Assembly: GCF_000828055.2 (NCBI RefSeq)
Contig: NZ_CP010523.2
Coordinates: 3,100,001 to 3,164,000 of the forward strand
Origin: Klebsiella variicola
GTDB taxonomy: Bacteria; Pseudomonadota; Gammaproteobacteria; Enterobacterales; Enterobacteriaceae
Reading direction: 5' to 3'
Length of the DNA: 64,000 nt
Shown here in pieces: positions 18,616 to 61,202 of the stretch. The translations under genes were made by a program, and so were the position numbers. The notes below the pieces were generated by a model. That model saw only the letters and a program-made list of their open reading frames with translations, searched no databases and had not been told where the DNA came from. The number at the start of each line of letters is the position of its first letter. Position 1 is the stretch's first letter.

Positions 18616-19581
18616 ATGATTAATGTATTTATATCCTATGCAAGAGAAGATGTTTTAATTGCAAAAAAACTAACCGAAGAGCTTAGTCGATATGATTACA
18701 ATGTATTTTTGGACCAACAATCGATTCGGCTTGGGTCTCATTGGCAAGAGGATATACTAAAGCATTTAAAAAACGCTGATGTATTTATCGCACTTGTTAC
18801 TGAACATAGCGATAAGTCTTACTATTTTAATATAGAGGTTACTGGTGCTATATCCTATGTTGCTAATAGCAATCGGGATAAGCTTGTTTTGCCAGTGGTA
18901 CTGGATAAAGAAGCTCTTAATGATAGTGATCTTGGGGCGTTCCAGGCATTATTCGCACGTTCTGATGATATGACAAACCTCGTTAATGAAATTGTAAATG
19001 CTATCAGCCGCTTCGAAGGAGCCCGAGTAGCTCAGGAAGAGAGAAAAGAAATTCGAGCAAAAGTTCTTAAAGATGAATCAGCCGATTATATAAGTGAAAC
19101 AATTGAGGATCTTAAGGCGCGCGAAAAAGATGGTCGTCAATTATCTTCAAGATGGCATTTTGCTGGATATGGGGCATTAGTAGCTTCTGTCATTTTCGTA
19201 TTAATTCTTTGGTTTTTAGCTGAGCGTTCATTTGTAGAATCACCTCTTGATACTACTAGACTGATTTTCGATGCTATTAAAGGTGTAACAGTTGTAGCGT
19301 TACTTTTGGGCTTGGCAAGGTATTCATTTTTAATGGCAAAAACGCATCAATTAGAAGCTTTGAAGAATGCCGATCGACTGCACGCAATTTCGTTCGGGAA
19401 GTTCTATATGCGCGTTTTTTCTACGCAAATATCTCAAACTGAATTGAAAGAAGTATTCCAACATTGGAATACTTCAGGGGCTTCAGATTTGTCGCATCTT
19501 GATGTAGATAAAATTGATTCACGATTTATTGAACTCTTTGGGAAAATCTCTGAAAAATTTGATATTAAAAATAAATCTTAA
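18616..19581 (+). CDS. TIR-domain protein with two membrane segments
   Basis: A 321-residue protein. Residues 1-135 form a bacterial TIR domain: it begins MINVFISYAREDVLIAKKL, has LDQQSIRLGSHWQEDI, and shows a candidate catalytic glutamate E74 in YYFNIEVTGA. A linker with charged helices follows. Two hydrophobic segments at about 183-204 and 213-238 and a C-terminal cytoplasmic domain of about 80 residues complete it. The ATG follows GAGGTCTC. AT-rich and flanked by non-coding DNA, it stands alone as cargo. Bacterial TIRs degrade NAD or make signalling nucleotides in antiphage defence; the membrane part suggests an effector or sensor. No partner gene of Thoeris or CBASS type is adjacent. Confidence 0.75.
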   Translation: MINVFISYAREDVLIAKKLTEELSRYDYNVFLDQQSIRLGSHWQEDILKHLKNADVFIALVTEHSDKSYYFNIEVTGAISYVANSNRDKLVLPVVLDKEALNDSDLGAFQALFARSDDMTNLVNEIVNAISRFEGARVAQEERKEIRAKVLKDESADYISETIEDLKAREKDGRQLSSRWHFAGYGALVASVIFVLILWFLAERSFVESPLDTTRLIFDAIKGVTVVALLLGLARYSFLMAKTHQLEALKNADRLHAISFGKFYMRVFSTQISQTELKEVFQHWNTSGASDLSHLDVDKIDSRFIELFGKISEKFDIKNKS

Positions 19582-19858: not shown

Positions 19859-21124
19859 TCACCTGACTTTGAGCAAGTCACTATATCTCGTGGTGTACCG
19901 AGGCGAAAGCATTTCTCGCTTCATCTGCCAGGCAGTCTGGATCCCTTGTCCTGCAAAATACAGCGTTCCCCTTCCGTCCTTTGCGTTGAGTTGGTCGAGA
20001 ACGTCCATTAGCTTGTCGCTGTTCTTCCGTGGTGCGTTATCATCGAAGAGATTAAGTTGCGCTACGCCCTGGCTGTAGAAATCTCCAAGCATTACACCTG
20101 CTTTCTGATAACGATGTCCGTCTCGCCAGATTGCATCGAGGCATTTCGTCGCCGCGGTGATGATGTCCCGGCTGTCCTGGGTCGGCGTTAGCAGCTTTAC
20201 CGATATGCTGTTTCCGTAATAGGGTTCATTCAGAGCAAAGGGGCTGGTTTTGACGAATGCAGAGATAAAGCGGCAGTACTGATGCTCGCCACGGAGTTTC
20301 TCCGCGGCACGGGATGCGTATAAGCATATCGCCTGGCGCATCTCTTCGTAGGTGGAAATCCGCTCCCCAAAGCTGCGACTACAGACAATCTCCTGCTTTA
20401 CCGGCGCGAACTCCTCCAGACCGAGACAGGGTTCCCCGCGTAGCTCCCGCACGGTTCGCTCCAGAACCACATTAAAATGCTTTCGGATAAAACGGATATC
20501 GGTATCCGCCAGTTGAAGTACCGTTTTAATCCCCATGGCCTCCAGTTTTTTACTGATGCGGCGCCCGACGCCCCAGACCTCATCCACCGGAAGCAAAGCC
20601 ATCAACTTCCTCTGCCTTTCCAGATTAGACAGATCCACCACTCCTCCGGTCTGTCGCTGCCACTGTTTCGCAGCGTGATTGGCCAGCTTTGCCAGGGTTT
20701 TAGTCTGGGCTATGCCGACGCCGACCGTGAGGTGCGTCCTGCGCAGAACCGTCTCGCGAATTTCCCTGCCAAAGTCGGTAAGGTCGCGACAATTCCGAAC
20801 TCCTGTAAGGTCGCAAAATGCCTCATCAATACTGTAAATTTCGCAGCGTGGAGAGAGTTCCTCCAGTGTTGTCATCACTCGGTTGGACATATCGGCATAA
20901 AGCTCATAGTTGCTGCTAAACGCGATAATACCGTGCCGGCGAAACATGTCCTTTTGCTTGAAATAAGGCTCACCCATTTTGACGAAGGGCTTCGCCTCTG
21001 GCGAACGGGCGATCACACAGCCGTCGTTGTTTGACAGAACGACCACCGGACGCCCTTTCAGGTCAGGACGAAATACGGTCTCGCACGATGCGTAAAATGA
21101 GTTCACATCGCAAAGTGCAAACAT
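19859..21124 (-). CDS. umuC: UmuC-like Y-family DNA polymerase V subunit
   Basis: A 421-residue UmuC homologue of normal length, starting MFALCDVNSFYASCETVFRPDL with the catalytic-site Asp of the Y-family palm. It carries the second acidic motif in YSIDEAFCDLTG. It performs translesion synthesis with cleaved UmuD during SOS. It begins 1 bp after the umuD stop, forming an SOS operon under the LexA box at 21568. Downstream, 19582-19858 holds no gene I can support. Confidence 0.92.
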   Translation of the reverse strand: MFALCDVNSFYASCETVFRPDLKGRPVVVLSNNDGCVIARSPEAKPFVKMGEPYFKQKDMFRRHGIIAFSSNYELYADMSNRVMTTLEELSPRCEIYSIDEAFCDLTGVRNCRDLTDFGREIRETVLRRTHLTVGVGIAQTKTLAKLANHAAKQWQRQTGGVVDLSNLERQRKLMALLPVDEVWGVGRRISKKLEAMGIKTVLQLADTDIRFIRKHFNVVLERTVRELRGEPCLGLEEFAPVKQEIVCSRSFGERISTYEEMRQAICLYASRAAEKLRGEHQYCRFISAFVKTSPFALNEPYYGNSISVKLLTPTQDSRDIITAATKCLDAIWRDGHRYQKAGVMLGDFYSQGVAQLNLFDDNAPRKNSDKLMDVLDQLNAKDGRGTLYFAGQGIQTAWQMKREMLSPRYTTRYSDLLKVR

Positions 21125-21125
21125 C

Positions 21126-21545
21126 TCAGCCAGCCGATTTGATGATGTAAGTTACGACCCCGAACACATCGAGAGTATCCTCGCTACCGACGACTATTGG
21201 CGAATATGCAGGGTTCATTGGGTTAAGCTGAACCCGTGGATGCAGCTGCAGCTTCTTAACGGTAAATTCCCCATCCACAGCAGCAATAACGATATCGCCA
21301 TGAACTGCTGTCCTTGAGCTATCCACAACCAGAAGATCCCCTTCCCCTATACCGGCGTCTTTCATGCTGTCACCGGCGGCTTTGACAAAATACGTCGCAC
21401 TGGGGTGATTGATTAGTAACTCATTCAGGTCTATGCGTTGCTCAACGTAATCCTGTGCAGGGCTTGGAAAACCACATTGCACAATGTCACTGTACAACGG
21501 GATCAGCATGATCTCACGTAACTCAACGGGCGTGTAAAACTGCAT
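21126..21545 (-). CDS. umuD: UmuD-like SOS protein, Pol V accessory and self-cleaving subunit
   Basis: 139 residues from the ATG at 21545 ([14 protein letters not shown]); upstream in-frame codons overlap the LexA box and are unlikely. The Cys24-Gly25 cleavage bond (QCGFPSP), Ser60 in [10 protein letters not shown] and Lys97 in EFTVKKLQL give the full self-cleavage machinery of LexA/UmuD proteins. After RecA-stimulated cleavage UmuD' joins UmuC as Pol V. It is the first gene of the umuDC pair carried by the prophage. Confidence 0.92.
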
Positions 21546-21567
21546 AATTGACTCGCTCAGATTGATA

Positions 21568-21583
21568 CTGTTTTTATATACAG
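21568..21583. promoter_or_regulatory. LexA box of umuDC
   Basis: CTGTTTTTATATACAG matches CTG-N10-CAG exactly and lies 23 bp upstream of the umuD start, extended by flanking TA...TA symmetry. Confidence 0.9.
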
Positions 21584-21763
21584 TAGTTTTAACAGAGCGA
21601 CAGATCAATATAGGTTCTGGCTATCAATTTATGTCATTGCCGTAACACATTGATGTAACGAGTAAGGTAAGTCTTAAAGTGTTTTCAGACCTTAGCTGTT
21701 TGATGGTTTTGCGAACAATGCGAGGTTAAAATTTTTCAGCTATGGCAATGCTTTCATAGCAAA

Positions 21764-21808: not shown

Positions 21809-22357
21809 TTAACCGGCTGGAAAATATTTATAAATCGTCTTCACTCCCACTCCTATCACATCGGCTACCTGCTGCCTGGTAGCGCCGTTCTCCAGCATTC
21901 TGCGGCACCGCTCCACAACCTCAGTGGTCATTACCCGGCGGCGTCCGCCTACTCTCCCCTGCTCCCTCGCTGCGGCTAAACCGGCTCGGGTACGCTCGAC
22001 GATCAGCTCGCGCTCCATTTCCGCCAGGGCGCTCATGACGTGGAAGAAAAAGCGGCCTGCTGGCGTACTGGTATCGATGCTGTCGGTCAGGCTGCGGAAA
22101 TTCACCCCGCGCGCCTGCAGCTCCGACACGAGCGTAATCAGATCGCGTACGCTGCGGCCCAGCCGATCCAGCTTCCAGACCACCAGCACATCACCCGGGC
22201 GGAGCCGCCGCAGCGCTCGCTTTAACCCTGGCCGCCGGGAATTTTTCCCGCTGGCCATATCCTCAAAAACCAGCTCACATTCTGCACGGATCAGCGCGTT
22301 TTTCTGTAAATCGAGGTTTTGATCCCCGGTTGATACCCTCGCATAGCCAATCAGCAC
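21809..22357 (-). CDS. Gin/Hin-type serine DNA invertase
   Basis: A 182-residue small serine recombinase close to Gin, Hin and Cin. Nucleophile Ser9 is in YARVSTGDQN. Catalytic arginines lie in RRPGLKRAL and WKLDRLGRS. LTDSIDTSTPAGRFFFHVMSALAEMERELI is the dimer/E-helix region diagnostic of invertases. A C-terminal HTH reads RQQVADVIGVGVKTIYKYFP. It starts 43 bp from the left 26-bp crossover site of the tailspike cassette, as Gin and Cin do beside their fibre segments, so it is its dedicated invertase. Family members need a Fis-bound enhancer; I could not locate one with confidence. Confidence 0.93.
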   Translation of the reverse strand: MLIGYARVSTGDQNLDLQKNALIRAECELVFEDMASGKNSRRPGLKRALRRLRPGDVLVVWKLDRLGRSVRDLITLVSELQARGVNFRSLTDSIDTSTPAGRFFFHVMSALAEMERELIVERTRAGLAAAREQGRVGGRRRVMTTEVVERCRRMLENGATRQQVADVIGVGVKTIYKYFPAG

Positions 22358-22400
22358 TATCTAACTCCTTGAAATAGCTGATTGTAAAAAGCCGCGGCCA

Positions 22401-22531
22401 TTCGCTCAAACCCTCGTTTGGGCGAACGCCTTTTTTGGAGCAAAAAACATGGCCTTTAACCCGGAGCTGGGGAGCACGTCTCCCGCTGTGTTGCTCGATA
22501 ACGCCGAGCGTCTGGATAAGCTGGTCAATGG
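22401..22531. repeat. Left inverted repeat of the invertible cassette with crossover site
   Basis: 131 bp that reappears inverted at 27356-27486 with only a handful of mismatches. Its outer 26 bp (22401-22426) form an imperfect palindrome, TTCGCTCAAACC - CT - CGTTTGGGCGAA, with the 12-2-12 layout and AAACC core of Gin/Hin/Cin sites. The repeat goes on through the RBS (TTTTGGAG), start codon and first 27 codons of the tailspike gene. Confidence 0.92.
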
Positions 22532-24200
22532 GTCCGAGCTGACTGAGCCGGATCGCGCTGGCGTTGAGCTGGATACCTGGCGCGGAATGATGGCGAAAAA
22601 TGATCAGGTTACTGAAGACGCCCGCAAAAGTATTACTGCGCTGGGATTACCCTATTCGACATTATCGGAAGCACAGGCAGCCGTGAACAATGGTCAGATA
22701 CCGGTGAACTCAGTTTGCTATGTCCGCAGCACTGACGACGCAGTAGCAATTGAGTATTTAAATGAAGCCGGAACACTGGTACCCACCGGGAATGTGTTGC
22801 CCTCAGAAGAAACCATCGACAAAAAGCTCAATCAGCGACTCGTCCCGGGTCAATACCTGTCGACATGGTTTCCTGTTTTTTTCGACAGAAACGGAAATGT
22901 TTACGCGTGGTTTGATGGCGGACGTTGGGACGTTGCTGATTTTGGCGCTAATGCACGAACAATCATTGAATCAGTACCTAACGCCTGGGCACAAAAATTT
23001 CTCCCCCAGGGAGACTACTCTCCAAATTACTTTCCGTTTGTTCACGACAGAAATGGAAATGTTTATGCATGGTTCCATAACGGTATGTATGACGGTTATG
23101 GATTTGGGCCAAATATTGAAAAGTATATCTTAAATCTTGTCGGTGGGGCTTCTGCAAAATCAGACAGTTCATTTATTGAAGGAGACCAGTATAAGTTCAA
23201 CTTTAAAAAAGGTCGTGTTTTCAGTGGGCAGGCAGCGAGTGTTAATACCGCATTTTTTGGTGACTCATGGAACGAAAAAAACACGATTCCACAATCATTA
23301 ATTAATGTTCTTGGTGGGATATATAAAGACCCGGCCTGGATAAGTTGCTCTAACCGCGCTGATGGTGTCATGGCTGGCATATCGCCTGTCGTTGCAACAA
23401 ACTTTACGAAATATGATGGAGGGAGTAATAACACGAACCCGCCACCGTATGGATGCGGACCTGATGGGAATGGGTATTACAATAACAATACTGTTGGGTC
23501 TCTGGCCTGGACCGGTATTACAGCAACCGATCTTTCAGTTTTCTATTATGATGGTTCCGGTTCGTTTACCATCACAATTGATGGCGGCACACCTATAACA
23601 GTCAATGGTGCGAACACCGGAGCAGCTAAAAAGCACGATATCAGTGGGCTATCCGCAACAGCCCATAGCGTAACGATTCAGAGCCTGGGAAGTGGGGTTG
23701 TATCCATTTTGGGGATGTATGGAAAGAACAGCGCTGTGCGTTCCGGCGTAACGGTTTCAAGGATGGGGAATGGCGGGGCTATAGGAAGTGATTTCTTTAA
23801 TTTTTCTGAGTGGATCAAACCTGTTGCACAGTATCTCGATATTGATTTGTTGTTCGTCATCCTTGGTACAAACGATTTCAGGTTAAGCAAGGGGACAACG
23901 CAATATAAAAATGGTCTGGTGGAAATAATTACAAAGTTTCGGGAAGCTACGCCCGGTATCTGTATTTGCCTGGTGTCACCGGGTCGCTGTAATGCAACTG
24001 GTACTCCAGCTCTGTCAGAGTACGATGCTGTCATGCGTGAACTGGCTGTTGAGTATAACGTCAACTTCATTAGTGGATATCAGCTATTCCCGAAAACGTA
24101 CGATAACAGCAATGGGGCCTGGGAGGATGGTTTGCACCTGAGCTCTCTTGGCGCATATATATTGACAAATAAAATCAAAAACGAATTTTTTCAGGAGTAA
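22449..24200 (+). CDS. Alternative (silent-orientation) tailspike B, SGNH-hydrolase type
   Basis: 583 residues. The N-terminus MAFNPELGSTSPAVLLDNAE is shared with tailspike A through the inverted repeat, and similarity persists weakly to about residue 115. Two repeats follow, each with the phrase DRNGNVYAWF (about residues 140 and 200). The C-terminal half is an SGNH hydrolase: FFGDSW with Ser273, ILGTNDFR, and D560-x-x-H563 in DGLHLSS. Such domains on phage spikes deacetylate surface polysaccharides. It points away from the late operon and has no visible promoter, so it should be silent until inversion places it behind the tail-tip gene. It is followed 2 bp later by 24203-24961. Confidence 0.85.
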   Translation: MAFNPELGSTSPAVLLDNAERLDKLVNGSELTEPDRAGVELDTWRGMMAKNDQVTEDARKSITALGLPYSTLSEAQAAVNNGQIPVNSVCYVRSTDDAVAIEYLNEAGTLVPTGNVLPSEETIDKKLNQRLVPGQYLSTWFPVFFDRNGNVYAWFDGGRWDVADFGANARTIIESVPNAWAQKFLPQGDYSPNYFPFVHDRNGNVYAWFHNGMYDGYGFGPNIEKYILNLVGGASAKSDSSFIEGDQYKFNFKKGRVFSGQAASVNTAFFGDSWNEKNTIPQSLINVLGGIYKDPAWISCSNRADGVMAGISPVVATNFTKYDGGSNNTNPPPYGCGPDGNGYYNNNTVGSLAWTGITATDLSVFYYDGSGSFTITIDGGTPITVNGANTGAAKKHDISGLSATAHSVTIQSLGSGVVSILGMYGKNSAVRSGVTVSRMGNGGAIGSDFFNFSEWIKPVAQYLDIDLLFVILGTNDFRLSKGTTQYKNGLVEIITKFREATPGICICLVSPGRCNATGTPALSEYDAVMRELAVEYNVNFISGYQLFPKTYDNSNGAWEDGLHLSSLGAYILTNKIKNEFFQE

Positions 24201-24202
24201 TT

Positions 24203-24961
24203 ATGCCTATTACAGCCATTTTACTTGATATGAACGGTCCCGTCATACCGGGGATGAAAACCCTTGATGACTTTACTATTTCAAACTGGTTCGTCGGGCT
24301 CCCGGATGTCAGTGCAACACCACTCTCGGGTTATTATTTTGGAGAGCCAGCGCCAGATATCACTTATAACTCCTATAACAAAAACGCTCCGGCCGTCATC
24401 AATGGTTCTCTGAATAATGCTGACGGTTATATCTCTGTTAACAATACTGACTATCTGGATACAAGCCAGAAAGCACCTCTGACGCTGACAATCTGTGGTG
24501 TGGCTAAACGGAATGCCGGCGGGGCCTCGCTGAATGCCCATATGATCGCAGATTTTTCAGGAAGCGGTTCAGTAGCGAGTGGCTTTTCAATTGGCTTCAC
24601 GAACGTGAGCGGAAATCTCTTTTGTGTAGGCCAGAATAATGGCCAGTCCTCCGCAGGGTATGCCTATGCAGCATTCCCGGCATCAATTGCCGTAGGTGAT
24701 CTGTTCGCGTTTGCTGCCTCGATAACCCAGGGGACAGTAACCGTTGATATTTACAACCCGCAGACCGGGGCACTGATATCATCATCAGCTGCTTTCCCTG
24801 GTACCCGAGTGGCCGGAACAAATAATGTCCTGCTGGGGAGGAAAACTGATAACAACAACGAAACAACGACCAAGTATATCAAGTCGGTTTTGTTGATGGA
24901 GGGCGTGCTTACTTCAGCAGAGAAGGTTTCTGTTTCACAGTTCTTATTATCTATGGATTAA
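24203..24961 (+). CDS. Tailspike-associated protein with a LamG/concanavalin-like domain
   Basis: A 252-residue protein starting 2 bp after the tailspike B stop and thus moving with it. The first 100 residues mention no known motif. The rest, ending LLMEGVLTSAEKVSVSQFLLSMD, has the look of a LamG-like jelly-roll carbohydrate-binding domain. It may be a second receptor-binding subunit or a partner needed only with spike B; tailspike A has no equivalent gene. Function is inferred from position and fold impression. Confidence 0.55.
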   Translation: MPITAILLDMNGPVIPGMKTLDDFTISNWFVGLPDVSATPLSGYYFGEPAPDITYNSYNKNAPAVINGSLNNADGYISVNNTDYLDTSQKAPLTLTICGVAKRNAGGASLNAHMIADFSGSGSVASGFSIGFTNVSGNLFCVGQNNGQSSAGYAYAAFPASIAVGDLFAFAASITQGTVTVDIYNPQTGALISSSAAFPGTRVAGTNNVLLGRKTDNNNETTTKYIKSVLLMEGVLTSAEKVSVSQFLLSMD

Positions 24962-24989
24962 AAAACTCCCCCGGAGGCACGCCGGGGGA
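24960..24989 (-). terminator. Late-operon terminator inside the invertible segment
   Basis: On the minus strand, TCCCCCGG - loop - CCGGGGGA is followed by a T6 run. It ends transcription coming through tailspike A and abuts the end of the opposing gene. Confidence 0.85.
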
Positions 24990-25122
24990 AAGGTGATAAA
25001 TGACATTATTGCTGTGTGCGTCTTTGCGCACGGTGTATCTTCCAAGAAAATTCCTGGTGTTTCCAGATTTTTCTTGCCCGGCTGAGTGCAGCAGGTTTAA
25101 GGCAGCGACAATGGACTGGTAT

Positions 25123-27438
25123 CTAACCTACCAGTTTCTGAAGGGCTGCAAGCCGATCGGTTATCAGTGAGGAAATACGCACGGGGCCCGCGTCCGCATT
25201 GAGGTGGATGCGGGACGGATTTGTATCCCCCTCGGTTAACAAAAAACTGGTGCTATTGAATTTTGTCCAGCCACAGTCAGCGTTAAGGTCTATTAGGGGG
25301 AATCCATATCGCAATGCTACGGCGCGTATCGCCGCCGCATAGTCAGAAACCCGCCCATAGCCATTTGTTTCACCGTCAACCCATGCCGCTGAGCGTGGAG
25401 AATCATAGTCCCCATTGAACGGTGTGGCCCACAGGATAGGTTTTGTTGGGGACCGCGCACGTAACTTCTGAGCGATGATGTTCAGCGCACCATAAACAGT
25501 TGTGTTTACTGTGTCGGTGATAGTTCCAATCGGAATATTTTGCGCCCAGTCATTTGTCCCCCACGGGCCACAAATCCACGCCGCTGCTGATGTGTCCAGG
25601 GCATTAATTCGCACATCGTCACACATGCTGATTTGCGTTGACGAGCTATCCGGTTTGGCTATTTTCGAACCACCGACCCCGTGATTCAGAAAAGTGCAGC
25701 CCAGTTCTGCCGCGACAAGAGGTTGCCATTTGTTATAAGCAACGTTGCTGTCACCCATCACATCGATGACTTTTCCAGACCACGGACTGACCGTGCTACC
25801 ACCGGGAACGACTACATATTTTTTGGCAATAATGGGGACGGCTATACGGGTGGTGATCCCGATTTTGGCGGTGCCGGAAGGAGGTGTCAGCTCGTAATCG
25901 GTGTAGTCCACCGATTCTGTAGTACCGTTCCCTTCGGTGCCGATAACCGTCCCGGCACTGTTCATATACACCGCGAGCGAAACTCCACTGCCGTTAACCC
26001 TCGCTGTGACTTTCCAGCGGTCTCCTGCTGTGTAATTAAAAATTGCACAGTCAAATGCAGCATTTGCCACCACACTGCCATCAGCACGGTTTATATATGC
26101 TCCTGAGGTAATCGTGACGTCCTGTTTAATAAAATCATATACAAGAGAGTCCTCTATTGTTTGTACCCTGACATCCAGAGAATCGATCGATGCCAGTACT
26201 GTGGCCGTCTCAACGACAGCAAGTTTTTTAACAGCAATTTCCGCAGAATTACGACCGGTTATACCGATCTGTGTTGTCCCGGCAGGAATGTTAAGACGAT
26301 AATTTGTATACTGCTGCGGGGTTGCCGTTCCCCGCCCTTCAACACCCAATACCATCCCGGCGCTGTTCATGTACACGGCCAGAGCAGTCGCCGATCCTGT
26401 CACAAGGGCTGTCACCAGCCAGCCATCCCCGTCGGAATGCGGAATGATTGCGCAGTTCAGCGCAGAGTTATCAGTGATGGCCCCTGTAGTTGGGTTGATA
26501 AATTTCCCGACTTGCCAGGCAGCTGCATAAGCATAACCAACAGAGATAGCCCCCTGGAGCGCATCGACGCGTGATGTTAACCCCGAAATACCGGATGATA
26601 TGACGGCTGACAGATAAGTTTTATCCGGCGTGGCGCGAACAAAATCAGGCTGAATAGCCCCCAACGCAGCAGCATAAGCACCGACCTTAAATATCCCTGC
26701 CGTAGTATTTTCAACCCGGATCCTGACGTAGGATGCGCCGGATGGAATGACATCTGTGATAACCGGCGTATTTATACCGGCGGCCAGAGCAAGCTGTGAT
26801 TTAGACGAAATAACAGCGCCCGCGGTGGACATCCAGAAAATATGGAACTTAGCACCGGCATCCTGGAACCACGCCAGTACGGAAAAGGTTAACTTATCAC
26901 CAACCCTTACAGGCAGGCGGGCAAGGTCATAATATTTATCTGCAGACCATACGCCGGAATACTGTGCCACTGGAGTCGGTAACGGAATATTGGCATCAGT
27001 AGTGCTGAAAGTGACCACTGCTCCGCGATACCAGTCCCACGCACCGAATTTAGGATCATTTGCTGAATATTCATTCAGAGCATCAAACAGAATGTTCGCC
27101 CCGCGTAGCGAAGAATAAGATGGCATTTTCCGCCCGGTAGGCTGCAGCGTACCGGAGTTATTGATCACTTCTACAGCTAAAGCGCTGTCATCCGGGCTGC
27201 GGTAATACGTGGTCGACCCCACCGGAATATTCGCGATGTCCGCCTGTGCCGCCGCCAGTGTCATGTACTGGCGACTCAGCGGGATTAGATTTTGATGGAT
27301 TCCACGCCATGAGTACAGCGGATCACCTGCGCGGTCGGGAACGGTGGCCGCATCTCCATTGACCAGCTTATCCAGACGCTCAGCGTTATCAAGCAGCACA
27401 GCGGGAGACGTGCTCCCCAGCTCCGGGTTAAAGGCCAT
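25123..27438 (-). CDS. Active-orientation tailspike A, SGNH-hydrolase type
   Basis: 771 residues. It has the same N-terminal adaptor as tailspike B. A beta-rich domain (about 110-255) and two tandem repeats of roughly 100 residues follow (about 300-410 and 435-550), each with LAVYMNSAG and IGIT. The C-terminal SGNH hydrolase contains VMGDSN with Ser564, NHGVGGSK, GTNDW and IHLN with His745. The usual DxxH aspartate is replaced: the residue three before the His is Ser742. It starts 78 bp after the tail-tip gene in the same direction, so it is the spike currently expressed in the late operon. The likely job is binding and de-acylating capsule or O-antigen. Confidence 0.85.
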   Translation of the reverse strand: MAFNPELGSTSPAVLLDNAERLDKLVNGDAATVPDRAGDPLYSWRGIHQNLIPLSRQYMTLAAAQADIANIPVGSTTYYRSPDDSALAVEVINNSGTLQPTGRKMPSYSSLRGANILFDALNEYSANDPKFGAWDWYRGAVVTFSTTDANIPLPTPVAQYSGVWSADKYYDLARLPVRVGDKLTFSVLAWFQDAGAKFHIFWMSTAGAVISSKSQLALAAGINTPVITDVIPSGASYVRIRVENTTAGIFKVGAYAAALGAIQPDFVRATPDKTYLSAVISSGISGLTSRVDALQGAISVGYAYAAAWQVGKFINPTTGAITDNSALNCAIIPHSDGDGWLVTALVTGSATALAVYMNSAGMVLGVEGRGTATPQQYTNYRLNIPAGTTQIGITGRNSAEIAVKKLAVVETATVLASIDSLDVRVQTIEDSLVYDFIKQDVTITSGAYINRADGSVVANAAFDCAIFNYTAGDRWKVTARVNGSGVSLAVYMNSAGTVIGTEGNGTTESVDYTDYELTPPSGTAKIGITTRIAVPIIAKKYVVVPGGSTVSPWSGKVIDVMGDSNVAYNKWQPLVAAELGCTFLNHGVGGSKIAKPDSSSTQISMCDDVRINALDTSAAAWICGPWGTNDWAQNIPIGTITDTVNTTVYGALNIIAQKLRARSPTKPILWATPFNGDYDSPRSAAWVDGETNGYGRVSDYAAAIRAVALRYGFPLIDLNADCGWTKFNSTSFLLTEGDTNPSRIHLNADAGPVRISSLITDRLAALQKLVG

Positions 27439-27486
27439 GTTTTTTGCTCCAAAAAAGGCGTTCGCGCAAACGAGGGTTTGAGCGAA
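27356..27486. repeat. Right inverted repeat of the invertible cassette with crossover site
   Basis: Inverse copy of 22401-22531. The 26-bp crossover site is at 27461-27486; read on the minus strand it is TTCGCTCAAACC - CT - CGTTTGCGCGAA, one base different from the left site and with an identical central dinucleotide, as recombination requires. Confidence 0.92.
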
Positions 27487-27515
27487 AGATAAAGTTGAAA
27501 GGGTTTTTTTTGGTA

Positions 27516-30500
27516 TTAAGCAGCGTCGCCGGGGTATGTGGCGTCGTCGTACTGGTAGAACGATTCGAGGTATTCTTTAGCGGTGACCTGACAGGTTCCG
27601 TCTGACTGCGGAGCGATCTCCTCTACAATGGCGTCGTAGACGTGGCGCGTTGAGCCGCAGAACACCAGGCGGATCGGCTCGATGGTTGCCGACGACAGGT
27701 CAACCCGCATGGGATCATCAAACTCGCTCAGGTGCGGGACTGACAGCTGAAAATCACCCACCCTGCTCGCCACCATCAGCCCGGATGCAGAGCCATCCTG
27801 ATAGCGGATCAGCGCGCGGGGATTTTCGAAAGACCAGTCCAGCGGCTCCGTAACGGTGAACGTTGTCACGCCACCAGCCGTTGTCATCGCCTCCACCAGA
27901 CAGGAAATCGTGTTGTTACCCGGAATATCATCCGTGAGCACGATGCGATCTCCCGTGTTGTAGCAAAGCGCGTCCAGCTCGGTTGTGGTCTGGAACGTCA
28001 CCCGCTGCTGCAGGTATTTCATCAGGCGACGCATCCCGATTTGGTAGGCGTGATCCTGATTGAGTACCCCATCGAGTTTGTAGTTTTCGATTTTCACCGG
28101 CGTGGGATTATCAGGCGTCCGGCATTTAACGGTCTCCTCTGCCCAGGTGACGCCATTGATGTACGTCACGTCGACGCCATCAAAATCATCGTCGGACGGT
28201 ACGGTAAATCCGCTCTGCAGCTCCTCCACCATCTCATGCGGGGTGATCACGCCGGTCCAGGGCTTAACCCCTTCCCTGTTTACGGTAGCCAGACCATCAC
28301 TCAGCAGAAAACGTGACTTCCCGGCATTGGCTATCTTCTGCAGCATTTCCAGCGCTGAGATACTGTCGCCCGTGGCAAAATCGAAATTTTCGCCCCGTGG
28401 CGTCCAGTATGCGGATTCCAGCGCGTTGATGGTGTCGACATCCATCTCCAGCCCCAGCGAGTTTCCGACATGCAGCAGAGCACCCGAGATAGTTCTGGCC
28501 GTTCCTGAGTCATAGGCGCGCGTGGCCACAACGTTTACACGTCGGTCCGACTGCGCCGCCAGCTTCCCGCCAGTCTCGACGGTCACCGCCATCAGCGACA
28601 CGCCGGGATAGGATGAAGGGCGCGTCAGCAGTCGCCCGCGCAGTGCCTGCCAGTACATACTGTCTCGCGCGTTGTTTGATCCCTGCTCATTGCGCCGACG
28701 GCAGCGAACCTCTACCAGCCCCGGAGAGCTGAGGGTGATCCGCTCAGTGAAACCTAACCCGTTGACGTTTTTCAGCGCATACTCGCCCTGGTGACTCAAC
28801 CACCCCGATCCGGAACCGTAGACGCGATACTGTATCTCCCACTCCACGTGGCGGATCCGTTTTTTGCCCTTACTGTCAAAGCCACAGATGCCGTTCGGGA
28901 AGGAGAAATTCACCTCGAATGCATCCACCACTTCATTCTCAGGGCAAACCAGGAACGGCCCCAGCCAGCTCAGCGTGTCGTTAAGACCAGTGGCCTCATA
29001 GTCGATCATCGTCCGGGCGGAGAATCCCGGCCATGACTCATCAACGGCACCGGAAACCAGGCGCGCAACCGTCGCCGTCGTGCCGTCGGCAGAGACAATC
29101 CGGTACTCATTCCCGCGGTGAGCAAGTGAAAGCCGTTGCACCCCCTCAGGCATGCCGGAAAAGGCTGTTCCCGTGGCGCTGTTATAGGCAAGCGTCACAT
29201 TCGCCGTTACCGCCGGGCTGCCGCCGGTTGATGCCGTGCCGGAGGTGTAAACCGGGGCATCACCGAAAACAGCTGCAGGCAGCGAAGAGGACGTGATCGC
29301 CCCACCCGCGAACGGACTGGCCGACTCGGTTATCAGTACAGTTCCGCCGTTATCCTGCGCAACCAGGCCGGAGCCAGTGAGTCCCTCAGTGATGGCCGCC
29401 AGCAGTCCCGACATAGAGACGTAGTTAGCCACCAGCGACACCGGGTAGGTAACCCCCTGCCAGGTGATCGTGAACGTGCTGGAGCTGGTCGAAAAGTCGT
29501 AGGTGGTCGGGGCCGCACTGGCCTGTACTTTTGCCGCACTTCCCCCGGTGCCGGGCACCGCAGCCTGACCTGGGGTATATGACGCGATAAACAGATCGTA
29601 ATCGACAGAGTTAAACCCCAGCGTCACCGGCATACCAACCAACGGCGCGATCTCCGTCAGCAGCGGGCTGGCGATAACGCTGTATCCGGCCGCCGAAGTG
29701 ATCTGGTAGTTAGCCGGGGCTTTCAGTTCGACCACGGCGCCAGCGACCCAGCTGGGCGGCAGCGCGTTATCGTCATTATCGTCATCATCATCCGTATCCA
29801 GCCCGGTAAACGTCACGCTCGATCCGGAGACGGTCATGCTGTCTGCGATAATGTCGTCTGCGTCCGGCGACGTCTGGGCCATATCCAGCCCGGTGCCGGA
29901 TGACGTCCCGCCCACTTCGGTGGAGTTGACCCAGTTTTCGCTGCGCTCATCACCGGAAACGTCCGCGCCTGGCGGGTAATGGGTGCTGCTGAATCCCGGT
30001 AGCGTTGAAGCCGGCGTACTGCCAACCCGGATATCGCCATTGGTATAAATCAGATCACCGATACCGAGACACAGCAGCATCTGGACGCGCATTTTCGTAG
30101 GATCGGCGGCATCAAACCGGGTAACCGGCTGCACCACATAATCAGGGTAGATACGCACCCGGCCAAACACCTCACGAATGGCATCACCGAGTTTTGCCGT
30201 ATTTGCCTTTGCCGGGTTCAGGTCGAGACTCCGCCCTGTGGATGAGGTATAGCCGCCCGTATCGATGTTGCTCATCATAAACAGCGAATAGGCTGCTGCG
30301 GCAACGGAGATACCGACACCTATCCACGCAATGGTCGCGGCCTCCAGCCCGAAGGGGACCGGATAAAGCCGGACATCACTATCAGGGCGAATCACACACT
30401 TAGCCCACTCGCCTGGCGGAATTAACAGCCCCTCAACCTCAACGGTCAGCGGTGGAACATCCAGATCCTCGTAGCCTTCAACATTTGCCACCAGCCAGCT

Positions 30501-30578
30501 GCGAATGCTGGTTACACCATGCTCATGCGTTTCGAGTGGCTCACCGGGAAGCCGGGACGGGTAAAAACGAATGGTCAT
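27516..30578 (-). CDS. Tail tip / host-specificity protein (lambda J-like)
   Basis: A 1020-residue virion protein at the position of lambda J. An N-terminal beta-grasp-like region with membrane-like segment (GLEAATIAWIGVGISVAAAAYSLFMMSN, about 76-104) precedes LGDAIREVFGRVRIYPDYV, typical of large tail-tip proteins. A long middle region with an Asp-rich stretch (DTDDDDDNDDN) and a C-terminal tail-hub-like part ending in YLESFYQYDDATY follow. It forms the central tip hub to which the switchable spike presumably attaches. It overlaps the upstream NlpC-like gene by 4 bp and is intact. Confidence 0.82.
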   Translation of the reverse strand: MTIRFYPSRLPGEPLETHEHGVTSIRSWLVANVEGYEDLDVPPLTVEVEGLLIPPGEWAKCVIRPDSDVRLYPVPFGLEAATIAWIGVGISVAAAAYSLFMMSNIDTGGYTSSTGRSLDLNPAKANTAKLGDAIREVFGRVRIYPDYVVQPVTRFDAADPTKMRVQMLLCLGIGDLIYTNGDIRVGSTPASTLPGFSSTHYPPGADVSGDERSENWVNSTEVGGTSSGTGLDMAQTSPDADDIIADSMTVSGSSVTFTGLDTDDDDDNDDNALPPSWVAGAVVELKAPANYQITSAAGYSVIASPLLTEIAPLVGMPVTLGFNSVDYDLFIASYTPGQAAVPGTGGSAAKVQASAAPTTYDFSTSSSTFTITWQGVTYPVSLVANYVSMSGLLAAITEGLTGSGLVAQDNGGTVLITESASPFAGGAITSSSLPAAVFGDAPVYTSGTASTGGSPAVTANVTLAYNSATGTAFSGMPEGVQRLSLAHRGNEYRIVSADGTTATVARLVSGAVDESWPGFSARTMIDYEATGLNDTLSWLGPFLVCPENEVVDAFEVNFSFPNGICGFDSKGKKRIRHVEWEIQYRVYGSGSGWLSHQGEYALKNVNGLGFTERITLSSPGLVEVRCRRRNEQGSNNARDSMYWQALRGRLLTRPSSYPGVSLMAVTVETGGKLAAQSDRRVNVVATRAYDSGTARTISGALLHVGNSLGLEMDVDTINALESAYWTPRGENFDFATGDSISALEMLQKIANAGKSRFLLSDGLATVNREGVKPWTGVITPHEMVEELQSGFTVPSDDDFDGVDVTYINGVTWAEETVKCRTPDNPTPVKIENYKLDGVLNQDHAYQIGMRRLMKYLQQRVTFQTTTELDALCYNTGDRIVLTDDIPGNNTISCLVEAMTTAGGVTTFTVTEPLDWSFENPRALIRYQDGSASGLMVASRVGDFQLSVPHLSEFDDPMRVDLSSATIEPIRLVFCGSTRHVYDAIVEEIAPQSDGTCQVTAKEYLESFYQYDDATYPGDAA

Positions 30579-32641: not shown

Positions 32642-35519
32642 TTACCTAGGACCGTGTCGTGTATAGTTTCCTTTTAGAGCGTTGCCAAAAGCCCCTTGTG
32701 GCATGGTAACCTCCTTTGTGAGTTCACCTTTTAACTGCCTGGAAAGCAGTCGATTATTCTGATTGAGTGTAGCGCTCAACTGCTCCGGAGTAATACCCTG
32801 GAGATGAAACTCCTGATTAATCGGCGCGTGTACAGTTGTTTGCCTACGGTTATCGCTGTTAACGTTCTGAACACCAGTACCAAACCCTGTACGCCCCAGA
32901 GTTGCATCAAGCGGTTGGCCATTTCGAAGTGCCTCAAGCTGAGACACGCCGATCCGGTTCGTTGACGCCTGGTCAAAGACGTACTCTCCTTTGTGAACAA
33001 TACCTGCGGGCTGATACTTGCTACCGGGGCCGGTGTAACCGCCGGAGGCGAAGCCAACTCCTGAAACAGCCTGGATATTTGAGACGATACTGGCAGTCTG
33101 CGCAGCGATTGAGGCCATAGCGATGATGTTGGCCGGATAAGGCGCGCTTACTGCCCCACTTGCTATAGCCTGCTGGATTTTCACCATAGAGTCAGCGATA
33201 GCGAATGCCTTGCTCGCAGCAAAAGCAACCTTGTAGATTGCCGATTGCTCACCAAACCCCGTTCGCATGATGTCGGCGGTACTGTCAAACAAAGACTGCG
33301 TGGCCGCAGATATGATGGTGTTTTTCTGAGCCTCGATGACCTGATTTGCATCCGCTGCACGCTGACGAATCGACGTCATTCTGGCCTCACCCTCGGCAGT
33401 TATTTCGCCGGCCTTCGCATAAGCTTCCTCCTGAGCTGCCAGCCAGCGCTGGAGCTCCTGCTGCGCCTGGTCATATTCATTGATTTGCCCCTGCATCCCC
33501 TCAAAAGTTCCAGAAAGTCGCCCTCCTGTGGGTGTCAGGTTTCCTACAACATTACGAACCGTCGAGGGCAGTTGCATATCGGTGTTTTGATAAATATCTG
33601 CCCGCGTTTTTTCATATTCACCGGGTTTAAGTTGCCCCGTTGCTTTGGCCTTCTCCAGCAGTTCAAGACGGGTTTTAAGCAGATCGTTGGTCCGCTCATC
33701 CTTCGTCTTTACCTGTTCCTGCATCTTCCGGTAATCGTCCAGGGTTTTTACGGAATTTTGCAGTGCCTCCTGCTGCTTATACGCCTGGAGGATTTCATCT
33801 GAACGGGAAAGAATCGACTTCTGGTCAGCGGTGAGCTGCGTTTTAGATTTGAGGTCAGCAATCTGCTGCTCGAACTTGATACGAGCCTGTGTCGCGCTGT
33901 TAAGCTTGTCACTGGCATCCAGCTGGGACTGCATGGCAGCAGTCTGCTGGTTTATCTGATCAAGCAGCCGGGTTGCTGCGTCCTCGGTATATGTTTTACT
34001 CTTTGGCGTCTTGGGTGGTTTCGGATCTTTGTACATCTCGTTAATACGAGAAACATTTTTTGAATATTGCTCTGCAGTAATTGCGCCTGCCTTCAGGAAC
34101 TCGCTTTGCTGCTTAATGGCTTTATTGCGCTTATCCGCATTGCTCAGATATTGCTGGTTAACGCGATCTGCTTCCTGCTGCGTTTTAATTCTTTGCTGTT
34201 CAGCTTTGTCATGACTACTGATTATTTCAGTTAAAACGCCTTCTGTTGTGATTTGAGATTGCAGATTATTTAGCTCATCTTCGAGTTCAGCCTTTCTTCC
34301 ACCAAAAAAATAGCTTCCGCCTGCAGCCTTATCTATCCAATCTAATTCCTTACGAATTTGAGAGATCCGCTCGGTGCCGGTTTGCTCGCGACCTATATCA
34401 AGCATGGCATCCCATGCTCCTTTAGCCGTTTAGCAAGCGAGTCCCAAGCACGTTCAAGAATCCCCAAATTCTGATGAATATCGTTCGCGCGCTGCTGCAT
34501 GGCATTGGCGTAAGCATCAGTAGCCACCCGTGCAGCATCCTGCTGATTACCTTCATCCTGCAGTGCTTTAATCTGGTTGTAGGTTGCCAGTGTCAGAAAG
34601 TGGTACTGGTCGTTAAGTTTGGTAATGGCCGCAACCGGGTCAGCAGCAATGTCGTTGAAATCACCCACCAGCTTTTCAGTGGCGATGCCTGTGGCTTCAC
34701 TGATTTCAACCACGGCAGTTGTTACTCGTTCCAATGACTCTGCAGCCACTTTCCCGGATGAAACTATCTGGTTAAGTGTGGCTGCGGTCACGCCAGTAGT
34801 TGAGTTGGCAACTACTGAAACCCGAGCGGCCATATCTGCTAGTTGCCCGGTGGTTTTACCAACAAGATTACCGTTAAGGGTCAATGATTTATAGAACTCG
34901 TCCTGCTCCTGAGAGCCTTTGTAATAGGCCAGCCCAAGAACACCGACAGCCGCGGCAGCCAGAGTGACAGGATTAATCAACCCCAGCACATACCCGCCAA
35001 CACCTTTAATCGCGGGGCCAATACCGCCGAACATATCTTTCAACTGCCCGCCCTGCTGCATAAGCACCATAAACGGCGACTGACCCGTAGATAAGCCGAC
35101 GATAATGTCAGTCATCTGCGCCGGGATCATGCGCATGGCAAAGGCAGTCTGTGCGGCAGATTGTCCGGTTTTGCTAAGGTCGTCGCGAAATCCAGTTAGC
35201 CTGTTTCGTGTTTCCTCGATTTTCTTTGAATAAAGATCGAATGTATCGGTATCTACCATCCCCTTTGATTTGAATTTCGCAAGATCTTGCTGTTGTTTAT
35301 CCAGTTTATTCAGAGCTGCGTTTACCGGGTCAATTCGATCTAAGAGTTCAGAAGAGAATGTTTTTCTTCATCAGTAGCCTTTGTCACTTTCCCTGCACTG
35401 GTAACAGCACGTTCGCCTGCCTGCGTCATTTTTACCAGTGCAGTTGCGAGATTGTCAGCCTGCTTTTCTGCCCCGGAGCTATCAATCACAATGGCCAGGC
35501 GGGAGGTTTGTTCTGTCAT
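32642..35519 (-). pseudogene. Tape measure protein gene broken by two frameshifts
   Basis: Three successive open segments make one lambda H-like tape measure. 35519 down to about 35345 begins [21 protein letters not shown] second runs to about 34425 and contains RMIPAQMTDIIVGLSTGQSP, the classic start of the TMP domain. A third reaches 32642 and is coiled coil, with SGGYTGPGSKYQPAGIVHKGEYVF near its end. The joins are near 35345 (one base missing before GAACTCTTAG) and near 34420 (AAAGGAGC where AAAAGGAGC would keep frame). With both repaired the protein would be about 958 residues. TMP sets tail length and helps DNA entry. Confidence 0.85.
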
Positions 35520-60407: not shown

Positions 60408-61202
60408 TTAAACTGGTGTGTTTTCATCACCAAGCACCCACAGCAAAGCCGCTGCGTATTCGCCGCTGGCGGTTTGAAGTTGCAGGGTGATTTCCTTACG
60501 GGATTTGAGACGCGGCTTTGTGTCGCCGAGGACAGCGCGCTGACGGCGAGCTTTCTCGTGGCCAGTTACACCCTCTGCCGCTGCCTCTAACTGTTTGACC
60601 GTTTCCCGTTGCTTTTCCGGTGGCATATCGACCAGCTGACGCGCTTGAGTGACAGTGACTTTTCCAGCCTCAACCGCCGCCTGGACGGCCTGCGTTGCAT
60701 CCAGTAGAGCCACGGTTGCCTGTACCGTTTTTACGCTGCAGCCAAAAAGCAGGGCAATGTCATTTTCGTCATGACCGTATTCCATTTGCTGAGCCATTTT
60801 TTTGGCCCGGCCCAGTGGGGTGTCTGGTTGCGTTATCTCGTTTTCGCTGACCATGTATTTGGCCATTTGAATTGCTGAGCCGCGCTTAGCTATACCTGGT
60901 ACCGGCCAGGGTTCCAGCCCTGCCCGTTTTCTCCTGGCGTTTGCTTCCTTAGCGTTCTTTACGCGCTGCCGACCTGCCACCACGCAGGTTTTCCCTGTCT
61001 CCGGGTCCTTCCACACGATAATCGGTTCGAGTACCCCAAGTTCCATGATGTTGAGGATCACAGCTTCACTAAGCGGTAGGTGTACTCTTTCGTCGTACAG
61101 CGGGTGTGTTGTATCGGTAACCAGATGCAAACTTTCCGGTTCGAAAAACAGAACATTGCTTTTGCCGCTGGCGCCGTATGCGTCGATAGAATTTTTAGCC
61201 AT
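60408..61202 (-). CDS. ParB/Srx-domain phage protein
   Basis: A 264-residue protein with an N-terminal ParB-like nuclease/CTPase-type domain (LSEAVILNIMELGVLEPIIV and CVVAGRQRVKNAKEANARRK) and a KorB/HTH region (DENDIALLFGCSVKTVQATV). Related proteins occur in the early region of Rac-type lambdoid prophages. It may act in partition or replication control, unproven. Lies 17 bp upstream of the initiator gene. Confidence 0.82.
   Translation of the reverse strand: MAKNSIDAYGASGKSNVLFFEPESLHLVTDTTHPLYDERVHLPLSEAVILNIMELGVLEPIIVWKDPETGKTCVVAGRQRVKNAKEANARRKRAGLEPWPVPGIAKRGSAIQMAKYMVSENEITQPDTPLGRAKKMAQQMEYGHDENDIALLFGCSVKTVQATVALLDATQAVQAAVEAGKVTVTQARQLVDMPPEKQRETVKQLEAAAEGVTGHEKARRQRAVLGDTKPRLKSRKEITLQLQTASGEYAAALLWVLGDENTPV

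What the first reader, a model, noticed from the sequence alone, without database searches (positions are those of the whole stretch)
22401..27486. Invertible tailspike cassette with its own Gin-type invertase
Seen in sequence: 131-bp inverted repeats at 22401-22531 and 27356-27486 flank two convergent tailspike genes, and a Gin/Hin-type invertase gene starts 43 bp outside the left repeat. Only the spike next to the tail-tip gene is co-directional with the late operon. Known: Mu, P1 and e14 switch fibres this way. Inference: the phage alternates between two surface-polysaccharide specificities, so a lysogen population would release mixed host-range particles. Klebsiella capsule diversity makes this a strong selective setting.
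Basis: partly seen in the sequence, partly recalled or inferred. Interest (0 to 1): 0.93.

Follow-up and report, generated by a model that had tools for sequence, protein, structure and literature searches.

The report
Phage switch swaps whole tail spikes
A prophage in a Klebsiella chromosome holds two complete tail-spike gene sets in a DNA segment bounded by short inverted sites beside a Gin-like invertase gene, and related prophages hold the same segment the other way round, so the phage likely flips it to change which spike, and probably which surface sugar, it uses.

Summary
Two 26-bp palindromic sites (22401-22426 +, 27461-27486 -), the only two in the 5.52-Mb genome, bound a 5.1-kb segment with two convergent spike cassettes; a Gin/Cin-type invertase gene begins 43 bp outside. 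Inversion is visible in relatives: among 99 two-site modules, 18 groups share a whole segment and 12 of the 18 show both orientations. One pair is identical over 9.7 kb of flank and differs by a flipped 5,551-bp segment. The window's own segment lies opposite in L034 and L030 (95.3%, 93.0%). Unlike Mu and P1, the site lies upstream of the start codon, so a whole spike with its own attachment domain and ribosome-binding site is swapped, not a C-terminus. The 131-bp repeat is incidental. Relatives with nearly the same invertase use a second site type inside the spike gene, Mu-like. Both spikes carry SGNH-esterase domains; cassette A adds a lectin-like gene. Host-range switching, Fis dependence and flipping in this strain are untested, and the tape-measure gene here is split, so this prophage may be defective. 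A real, widespread, new variant of a known kind.

The parts
21809..22357 (-). Gin/Cin-type serine DNA invertase, 182 aa
   Evidence: Pfam Resolvase 1.7e-49 and HTH_7; PHROG_125 DNA invertase 1.3e-86; Gin structure 4m6f E 4.1e-72 with the Ser of YxRVST kept; 68.5% identical to P1 Cin
22401..22426 (+). 26-bp crossover site, invertase side, centre CT
27461..27486 (-). 26-bp crossover site, J side, centre CT; differs from the other at base 21
22401..22531 (+). left arm of the 131-bp repeat: site, leader, start codon and first 28 codons of spike A
27356..27486 (-). right arm of the 131-bp repeat: the same parts of spike B
22449..24200 (+). spike A, 583 aa, invertase side (predicted silent orientation): attachment domain plus SGNH esterase body
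   Evidence: PF13472 1.6e-12; GDS, GTND and DxxH motifs; AlphaFold model pLDDT 79.8, best PDB match Ape1 O-acetylesterase 8gkd, TM 0.79 by target, 0.50 by query
24203..24961 (+). second gene of cassette A, 252 aa, predicted jelly-roll lectin-like fold
   Evidence: no Pfam match; PHROG_34046, function unknown; model pLDDT 87.8, pTM 0.84, PDB matches at TM about 0.5-0.6 by query
25123..27438 (-). spike B, 771 aa, J side (predicted expressed orientation): attachment domain, repeats, SGNH domain
   Evidence: PF13472 1.1e-10; GDSL-like 7bxd E 8.7e-11; GDS and GTND kept, the Asp of DxxH not
27516..30578 (-). tail-tip protein J, 1020 aa
   Evidence: PHROG_469 tail protein 6e-295; Pfam FNIII-A_GpJ
22250..22333 (.). 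candidate recombinational enhancer inside the invertase gene
   Evidence: synonymous diversity dips here across 88 distinct invertase genes (lowest 12-codon window 22292-22327; 0.120 against mean 0.336; permutation p 0.002). No pair of Fis-like motifs at 44-52 bp spacing found
22381..22409 (-). promoter-like site of the invertase, -35 overlapping the left crossover site
   Evidence: where promoter-like sites are no more frequent than in shuffles; the -10 hexamer is kept in 84 of 84 class I and 15 of 15 class II modules
24966..24990 (-). terminator-like hairpin after spike B, between the convergent cassettes

Best explanation
A 5.1-kb segment with two whole tail-spike cassettes lies between two inverted 26-bp sites, the same segment sits in the opposite orientation in related prophages, and the adjacent Gin-like serine invertase likely flips it so that one cassette at a time is placed behind the tail-tip gene J and would be expressed. 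Shown: the anatomy; both orientations in relatives; for one pair of prophages, a perfect flip in otherwise identical DNA; a crossover inside the site in the informative Mu-like pairs. Inferred: that this invertase does it (by relationship, adjacency and joint loss), that the J-side cassette is the expressed one (no promoter was mapped), that Fis and an enhancer within the invertase gene are needed, and that the two spikes remove acetyl groups from different surface polysaccharides. Because the site precedes the ribosome-binding site and start codon, each cassette brings its own leader, attachment domain and any second gene, so the alternatives need share only 26 bp.
For: Invertase identity. 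Sites; always inverted where two occur (84 of 84 class I modules; 17 of 17 two-site stretches in a separate pattern scan, 0 direct). Orientation: 19 opposite and 17 same class I pairs, 2 and 3 class II; 12 of 18 groups show both. L020 (E. coli MRSN346595) against L074: inside 5,551 bp at 100% inverted, flanks 3,591 and 6,131 bp with 0 mismatches; L098 against L106 (5,833 bp) and L208 against L210 (4,798 bp) also 100% inside. Window opposite to L034 and L030; spike A next to J in E. coli 3426, with another partner. Crossover: in L208/L210 bases 6-7 stay with the flank and 16, 21, 26 move with the cassette; L198/L199 agree (6-7 against 21-22). No side preference: 24 of 29 multi-member spike families occur on both sides, 22.6 (sd 2.0) expected for random orientation. 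Joint loss: invertase intact in 80 of 84 two-site modules and 1 of 17 that lack the invertase-side site.
Against: No reads of this strain were available; flipping here is not shown. No second Fis motif at the known spacing. For L084/L118 and L086/L118 (about 93% pairs; L084 and L086 are near-identical, so about one observation) base 21 stays with the flank, against a simple crossover. Joint loss of site and invertase can be one deletion, as they lie 43 bp apart. Six of 18 groups show one orientation only. The tape-measure gene of this prophage is split. The module counts come from similarity-fetched, partly capped lists.
Confidence: 0.86

Rival explanations
1. The host's RecA recombines the long repeats; the invertase is a bystander.
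For: The window has 131 bp of 97% identical inverted repeat, enough for homologous recombination.
Against: Flipped pair L098/L106 is 100% identical inside although its arms stop matching at base 27; in class II the crossover maps within bases 8-15 of the site; anchors of the two spikes of a module are no more alike than those of different modules (0.473 against 0.442, 436 of 2000 permutations as high); 80 of 84 two-site modules keep an intact invertase.
Confidence: 0.05
2. In this strain the module is a relic: the switch still exists but the prophage no longer makes particles, so the switch has no effect here.
For: The tape-measure gene is open in two different frames of 595 and 324 aa, where L035 and L097 have one frame of 959 aa and L034 one of 979.
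Against: Invertase, both spikes and J are each uninterrupted. A single split frame can be an assembly error. The isolated phage KPP5665-2 has the same module with both sites.
Confidence: 0.3
3. The invertase-side cassette is mainly a spare part for exchange between prophages; flipping is rare and host-range switching is not its main use.
For: 58 distinct family pairs in 76 modules and up to 7 partner families per spike family: partners are reshuffled often. Whole segments are shared between prophages whose J regions are only 67-72% identical.
Against: Both sides are populated as for random orientation, and an otherwise identical pair differs by the flip alone over the 15 kb compared, so flipping is frequent relative to point mutation there.
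Confidence: 0.15

Closest known systems
Phage Mu G segment (Gin) and phage P1 C segment (Cin)
   Same: Invertase family (Gin E 4.1e-72; Cin 68.5%), invertase outside the segment, 26-bp sites, tail adhesin genes inside.
   Different: There, by the published and recalled account, the crossover lies inside the fibre gene and only the C-terminal part changes; here it is upstream of the start codon and the whole gene changes.
E. coli EC958 prophages Phi1, Phi2 and Phi4 (PMC4134206; passages read)
   Same: 26-bp sites, invertase, both orientations seen (by PacBio); alternating major and minor fibre genes, as in cassettes with a second gene.
   Different: Segments of 2-3 kb, constant N-terminal part with switched 3' part, collar-type fibres; about half of the reads were inverted for Phi1.
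Class II relatives found here (for example L135, L208, L210)
   Same: Same invertase lineage (L135 99% at protein level) and the same J side.
   Different: Centre TG, J-side site inside the spike ORF, invertase-side spike without a head: the Mu/P1 layout.
p15B Min and bifidobacterial Rin shufflons (PMC6109161; passages read)
   Same: Receptor-binding protein switched by inversion.
   Different: More than two sites with several C-terminal parts; Rin uses a tyrosine recombinase.
SGNH receptor-binding proteins of Klebsiella prophages (PMC13123978; abstract passages and other passages read)
   Same: SGNH-domain tail proteins, two of them shown there to be active esterases.
   Different: The paper's main text holds no word beginning with invert, recombinase, invertase, phase variation or shuffl.

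Membership tests
Gin/Hin/Cin serine DNA-invertase systems | small serine recombinase with catalytic Ser and C-terminal HTH | tested here: met
Gin/Hin/Cin serine DNA-invertase systems | two inverted 26-bp dyad sites with an identical, non-palindromic 2-bp centre | tested here: met
   centre CT in both sites here; CT in 101 of 101 J-side and 84 of 99 invertase-side sites, TG in the other 15
Gin/Hin/Cin serine DNA-invertase systems | enhancer with two Fis sites, about 100 bp from one site in Hin (PMC3798978, passages) | tested here: inconclusive
   synonymous constraint at the expected place, no Fis pair at the expected spacing
Gin/Hin/Cin serine DNA-invertase systems | both orientations occur | tested here: met
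   in relatives; not testable in this strain, no reads held
Mu/P1-type tail-fibre C-terminus switch | crossover inside the fibre gene; constant N-terminus, switched C-terminus | tested here: not met
   site 22401-22426 precedes ATG 22449, site 27461-27486 precedes ATG 27438; met in class II relatives
SGNH/GDSL esterase tail spikes | SGNH domain with catalytic motifs | tested here: met
   PF13472 above cut-off in both; all three motifs in A, DxxH Asp missing in B
SGNH/GDSL esterase tail spikes | esterase activity on the host polysaccharide | not testable with these tools
   needs protein and capsule

The most novel reading that the evidence does not exclude
The 26-bp site is a universal socket: a pool of at least 55 spike families, each with its own attachment domain and often a partner lectin gene, circulates between prophages of Klebsiella and its neighbours through one shared crossover address, and at any time about half of the spike genes in these prophages are silent. 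This would blur the link between prophage spikes and host capsule type. The same invertase lineage has moved its address between whole-gene and C-terminal swapping.
Probability: 0.35. Interest if true: 0.75.

Novelty: new variant of a known kind. Interest (0 to 1): 0.6.

Why it matters
A 2026 study of Klebsiella prophages found SGNH receptor-binding proteins to be very common, no capsule predictor for nearly a third of the K-loci, and 5 of 14 active depolymerases aimed at a capsule type other than their host's (PMC13123978, abstract passages). An invertible pair in which one spike is silent would yield such mismatches: a lysogen's capsule reflects the spike that was ON at infection, while the genome also carries the OFF spike. 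That is testable by scoring orientation before associating spikes with capsules. The layout also shows that a Gin-type switch can exchange whole adhesins that share only a 26-bp address.

Tried and rejected
Rejected: the 131-bp repeat as the working element. Rejected: matched evolution of the two attachment domains within a module (18 of 76 identical, mean no higher than between modules). Withdrawn: I first thought that the flanks of L020/L074 differ by about 1%; one search shows that those mismatches came from the arms, the flanks being identical over the stretch compared. Withdrawn: the homology-start test is uninformative, because the conserved site makes every match begin at base 1; one search replaced it and shows that in 83 of 208 pairs with a shared cassette body and different partner the first 30 codons are under 80% identical, so exchange also happens inside the anchor; only 8 of 104 same-position pairs look like exchange at or near the site with a changed flank.

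Led nowhere: spike B in genome contigs (16 pattern matches, none confirmed); a Fis pair; PDB sequence match for spike A (one chance hit at E 0.036); L005 tape-measure protein against the window (no hit). Promoter-like sites: 9 found, 9.3 expected. Pfam on one member of each of 20 further spike families (clusters 3 to 22 by size): SGNH/SASA-type matches in 8 of 20, of which 4 pass the curated cut-off; beta-helix in 1; no Pfam match in 11.

Papers: nine searches listed no paper on an invertible whole-spike cassette in Klebsiella siphoprophages; the library is open-licence PMC only, so this is weak evidence of absence. Eight papers were seen as passages by term search; none was read whole.

Full report
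WHAT IS THERE. In window 21809-30578, on the minus strand, J (27516-30578) is followed by spike B (25123-27438). Facing it on the plus strand are spike A (22449-24200) and a 252-aa gene (24203-24961), then the invertase (21809-22357, minus). The two arms of 131 bp (97%) contain, in order, a 26-bp palindrome, a leader with a T-run, GGAGC and an A-run, the ATG and the first codons. The palindrome, TTCGCTCAAACC-CT-CGTTTGGGCGAA on the left and with one changed base on the right, occurs nowhere else in the window or the 5.52-Mb genome, and the genome has no second match to this invertase. The host flank is Klebsiella: its best three records are K. pneumoniae at 94.3%, though records very near the window may be hidden.

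THE FAMILY. I pooled 214 loci (two searches returned the best 80 of 149 and of at least 595 confirmed places, so this is a capped sample) plus the window. Of these 215 entries 147 hold both the end of J and an invertase, always with the invertase on J's strand and beyond the cassettes; 116 are distinct. Of the 116, 84 are class I (both sites, centre CT), 17 have only the J-side site, and 15 are class II. In class II the centre is TG, the J-side site is inside the spike ORF and the invertase-side spike has no head. Class I segments are 4.8-8.4 kb. In genome contigs, two class I sites with J occur in Enterobacter sp. JUb54 and Raoultella sp. BIGb0138, and two class II sites with J in K. spallanzanii, among 79 loci. 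The isolated phage KPP5665-2 has the module with both sites; its J is annotated 'kinase' and one spike 'flagellar biosynthesis protein'.

INVERSION IS SEEN. Comparing whole segments (over 85% covered), 19 class I and 2 class II pairs lie in opposite orientation, 17 and 3 in the same. Grouped, 12 of 18 families of segments show both orientations. L020 (E. coli MRSN346595) and L074 are identical over 3,591 bp and 6,131 bp of flank and over the 5,551-bp segment, which is flipped; L021 differs from L074 by one flank base. L098/L106 and L208/L210 are 100% inside, with 620 bp and 1,500 bp of nearest flank also identical, although farther flanks diverge. The window's own pair of cassettes lies flipped in L034 (95.3%) and L030 (93.0%).

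WHERE IT CROSSES OVER. In L208/L210 bases 6 and 7 of the site stay with the flank and bases 16, 21 and 26 go with the cassette; L198/L199 agree (6-7 against 21-22). So the exchange lies within bases 8-15, around the centre. In class I, base 21 goes with the cassette in L035/L048 but stays with the flank in L084/L118 and L086/L118, pairs of about 93% identity; mutation or conversion could explain the latter, but it is a contrary datum. In 10 of 17 modules printed the arms differ from base 27, so only the 26 bp are a perfect repeat there.

NO PREFERRED SIDE. 159 of 168 arms carry a spike of at least 300 aa; they fall into 55 families at 50% body identity. Of 29 families with two or more members, 24 occur on both sides, 22.6 (sd 2.0) being expected if each module were oriented at random. 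113 of 159 spikes are followed by a second gene, mostly 224-281 aa; 19 of 113 are detectably related to the window's 252-aa protein, 21 after one iteration.

INVERTASE AND CONTROL. The invertase is Gin/Cin-like. Across 88 distinct invertase genes synonymous diversity falls from a mean of 0.336 to 0.120 near codons 11-22 (permutation p 0.002), 86-121 bp inside the left site; the Hin enhancer lies about 100 bp from its site (PMC3798978). No Fis pair at the usual spacing was found. The -10 hexamer before the invertase is kept in all 84 class I and 15 class II modules, and its -35 would overlap the site, which would allow the invertase to repress itself (inference). The invertase is intact in 80 of 84 two-site modules and 1 of 17 without the invertase-side site (Fisher p 5e-14), though one deletion may remove both.

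WHAT THE CASSETTES ARE. Both spikes have an SGNH domain above Pfam's cut-off. The model of A resembles the Ape1 O-acetylesterases (8gkd, TM 0.79 by target, 0.50 by query), with GDS, GTND and DxxH present; B lacks the Asp of the last motif. The 252-aa protein models as a jelly-roll, concanavalin-like fold (pLDDT 87.8; matches at TM 0.5-0.6). SGNH spikes of Klebsiella prophages have been shown elsewhere to be esterases (PMC13123978). That A and B act on different capsules is an inference.

MECHANISM. Late transcription would run through J into the J-side cassette and likely stop at the hairpin 24966-24990 (predicted). The invertase would pair the two sites and exchange strands at CT, turning the segment. 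Because the site precedes the leader and ATG, the swap is of whole genes. This differs from Mu, P1 and the EC958 prophages, where a constant N-terminus receives a new C-terminus, while class II relatives with nearly the same invertase keep that older-looking layout; which came first was not tested.

LIMITS. No reads of this strain; no binding or activity data; the sample is similarity-driven and capped; the tape-measure gene here is in two frames, so particle release from this lysogen is doubtful until checked.

Noticed in passing
32645-35367: Tape-measure gene open in two frames (595 and 324 aa) that overlap near 34396-34429; L035, L097 (959 aa) and L034 (979 aa) have one frame. Frameshift or assembly error.
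   Followed up: partly
22427-22451 and 27436-27460: After the site, a T-run (at least 4 T within 14 nt in 165 of 168 arms, background 5.5%) and an A-run frame the GGAGC ribosome-binding site. The RNA could form the site hairpin plus U-tract (terminator-like) or a U-A hairpin with the ribosome-binding site at its loop.
   Followed up: partly
19859-21608: umuDC-like pair beside the invertase, with the LexA-box-like TACTGTTTTTATATACAGTA at 21566; several relatives carry the same pair there.
   Followed up: partly
18616-19581: TIR-domain protein (PF13676 7.6e-21; weak matches to TIR defence models) at the edge of the prophage, possibly a defence gene.
   Followed up: partly
60408-61202: ParB-like partition protein (PHROG_1033 3.8e-69) beside a helicase-loader-like gene.
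   Followed up: no
L032 and L053: Two contigs of one IMG genome (2808606809) carry the same two cassettes at 99.1% in opposite orientation, with flanks only 92.6% and 94.5% identical: perhaps two prophages of one cell sharing a segment.
   Followed up: partly
L003, L005, L023, L025, L027-L029, L063, L080, L082, L088, L107, L108, L114, L127, L128, L133: 17 modules with only the J-side site, 16 with a broken invertase: apparently locked versions.
   Followed up: partly
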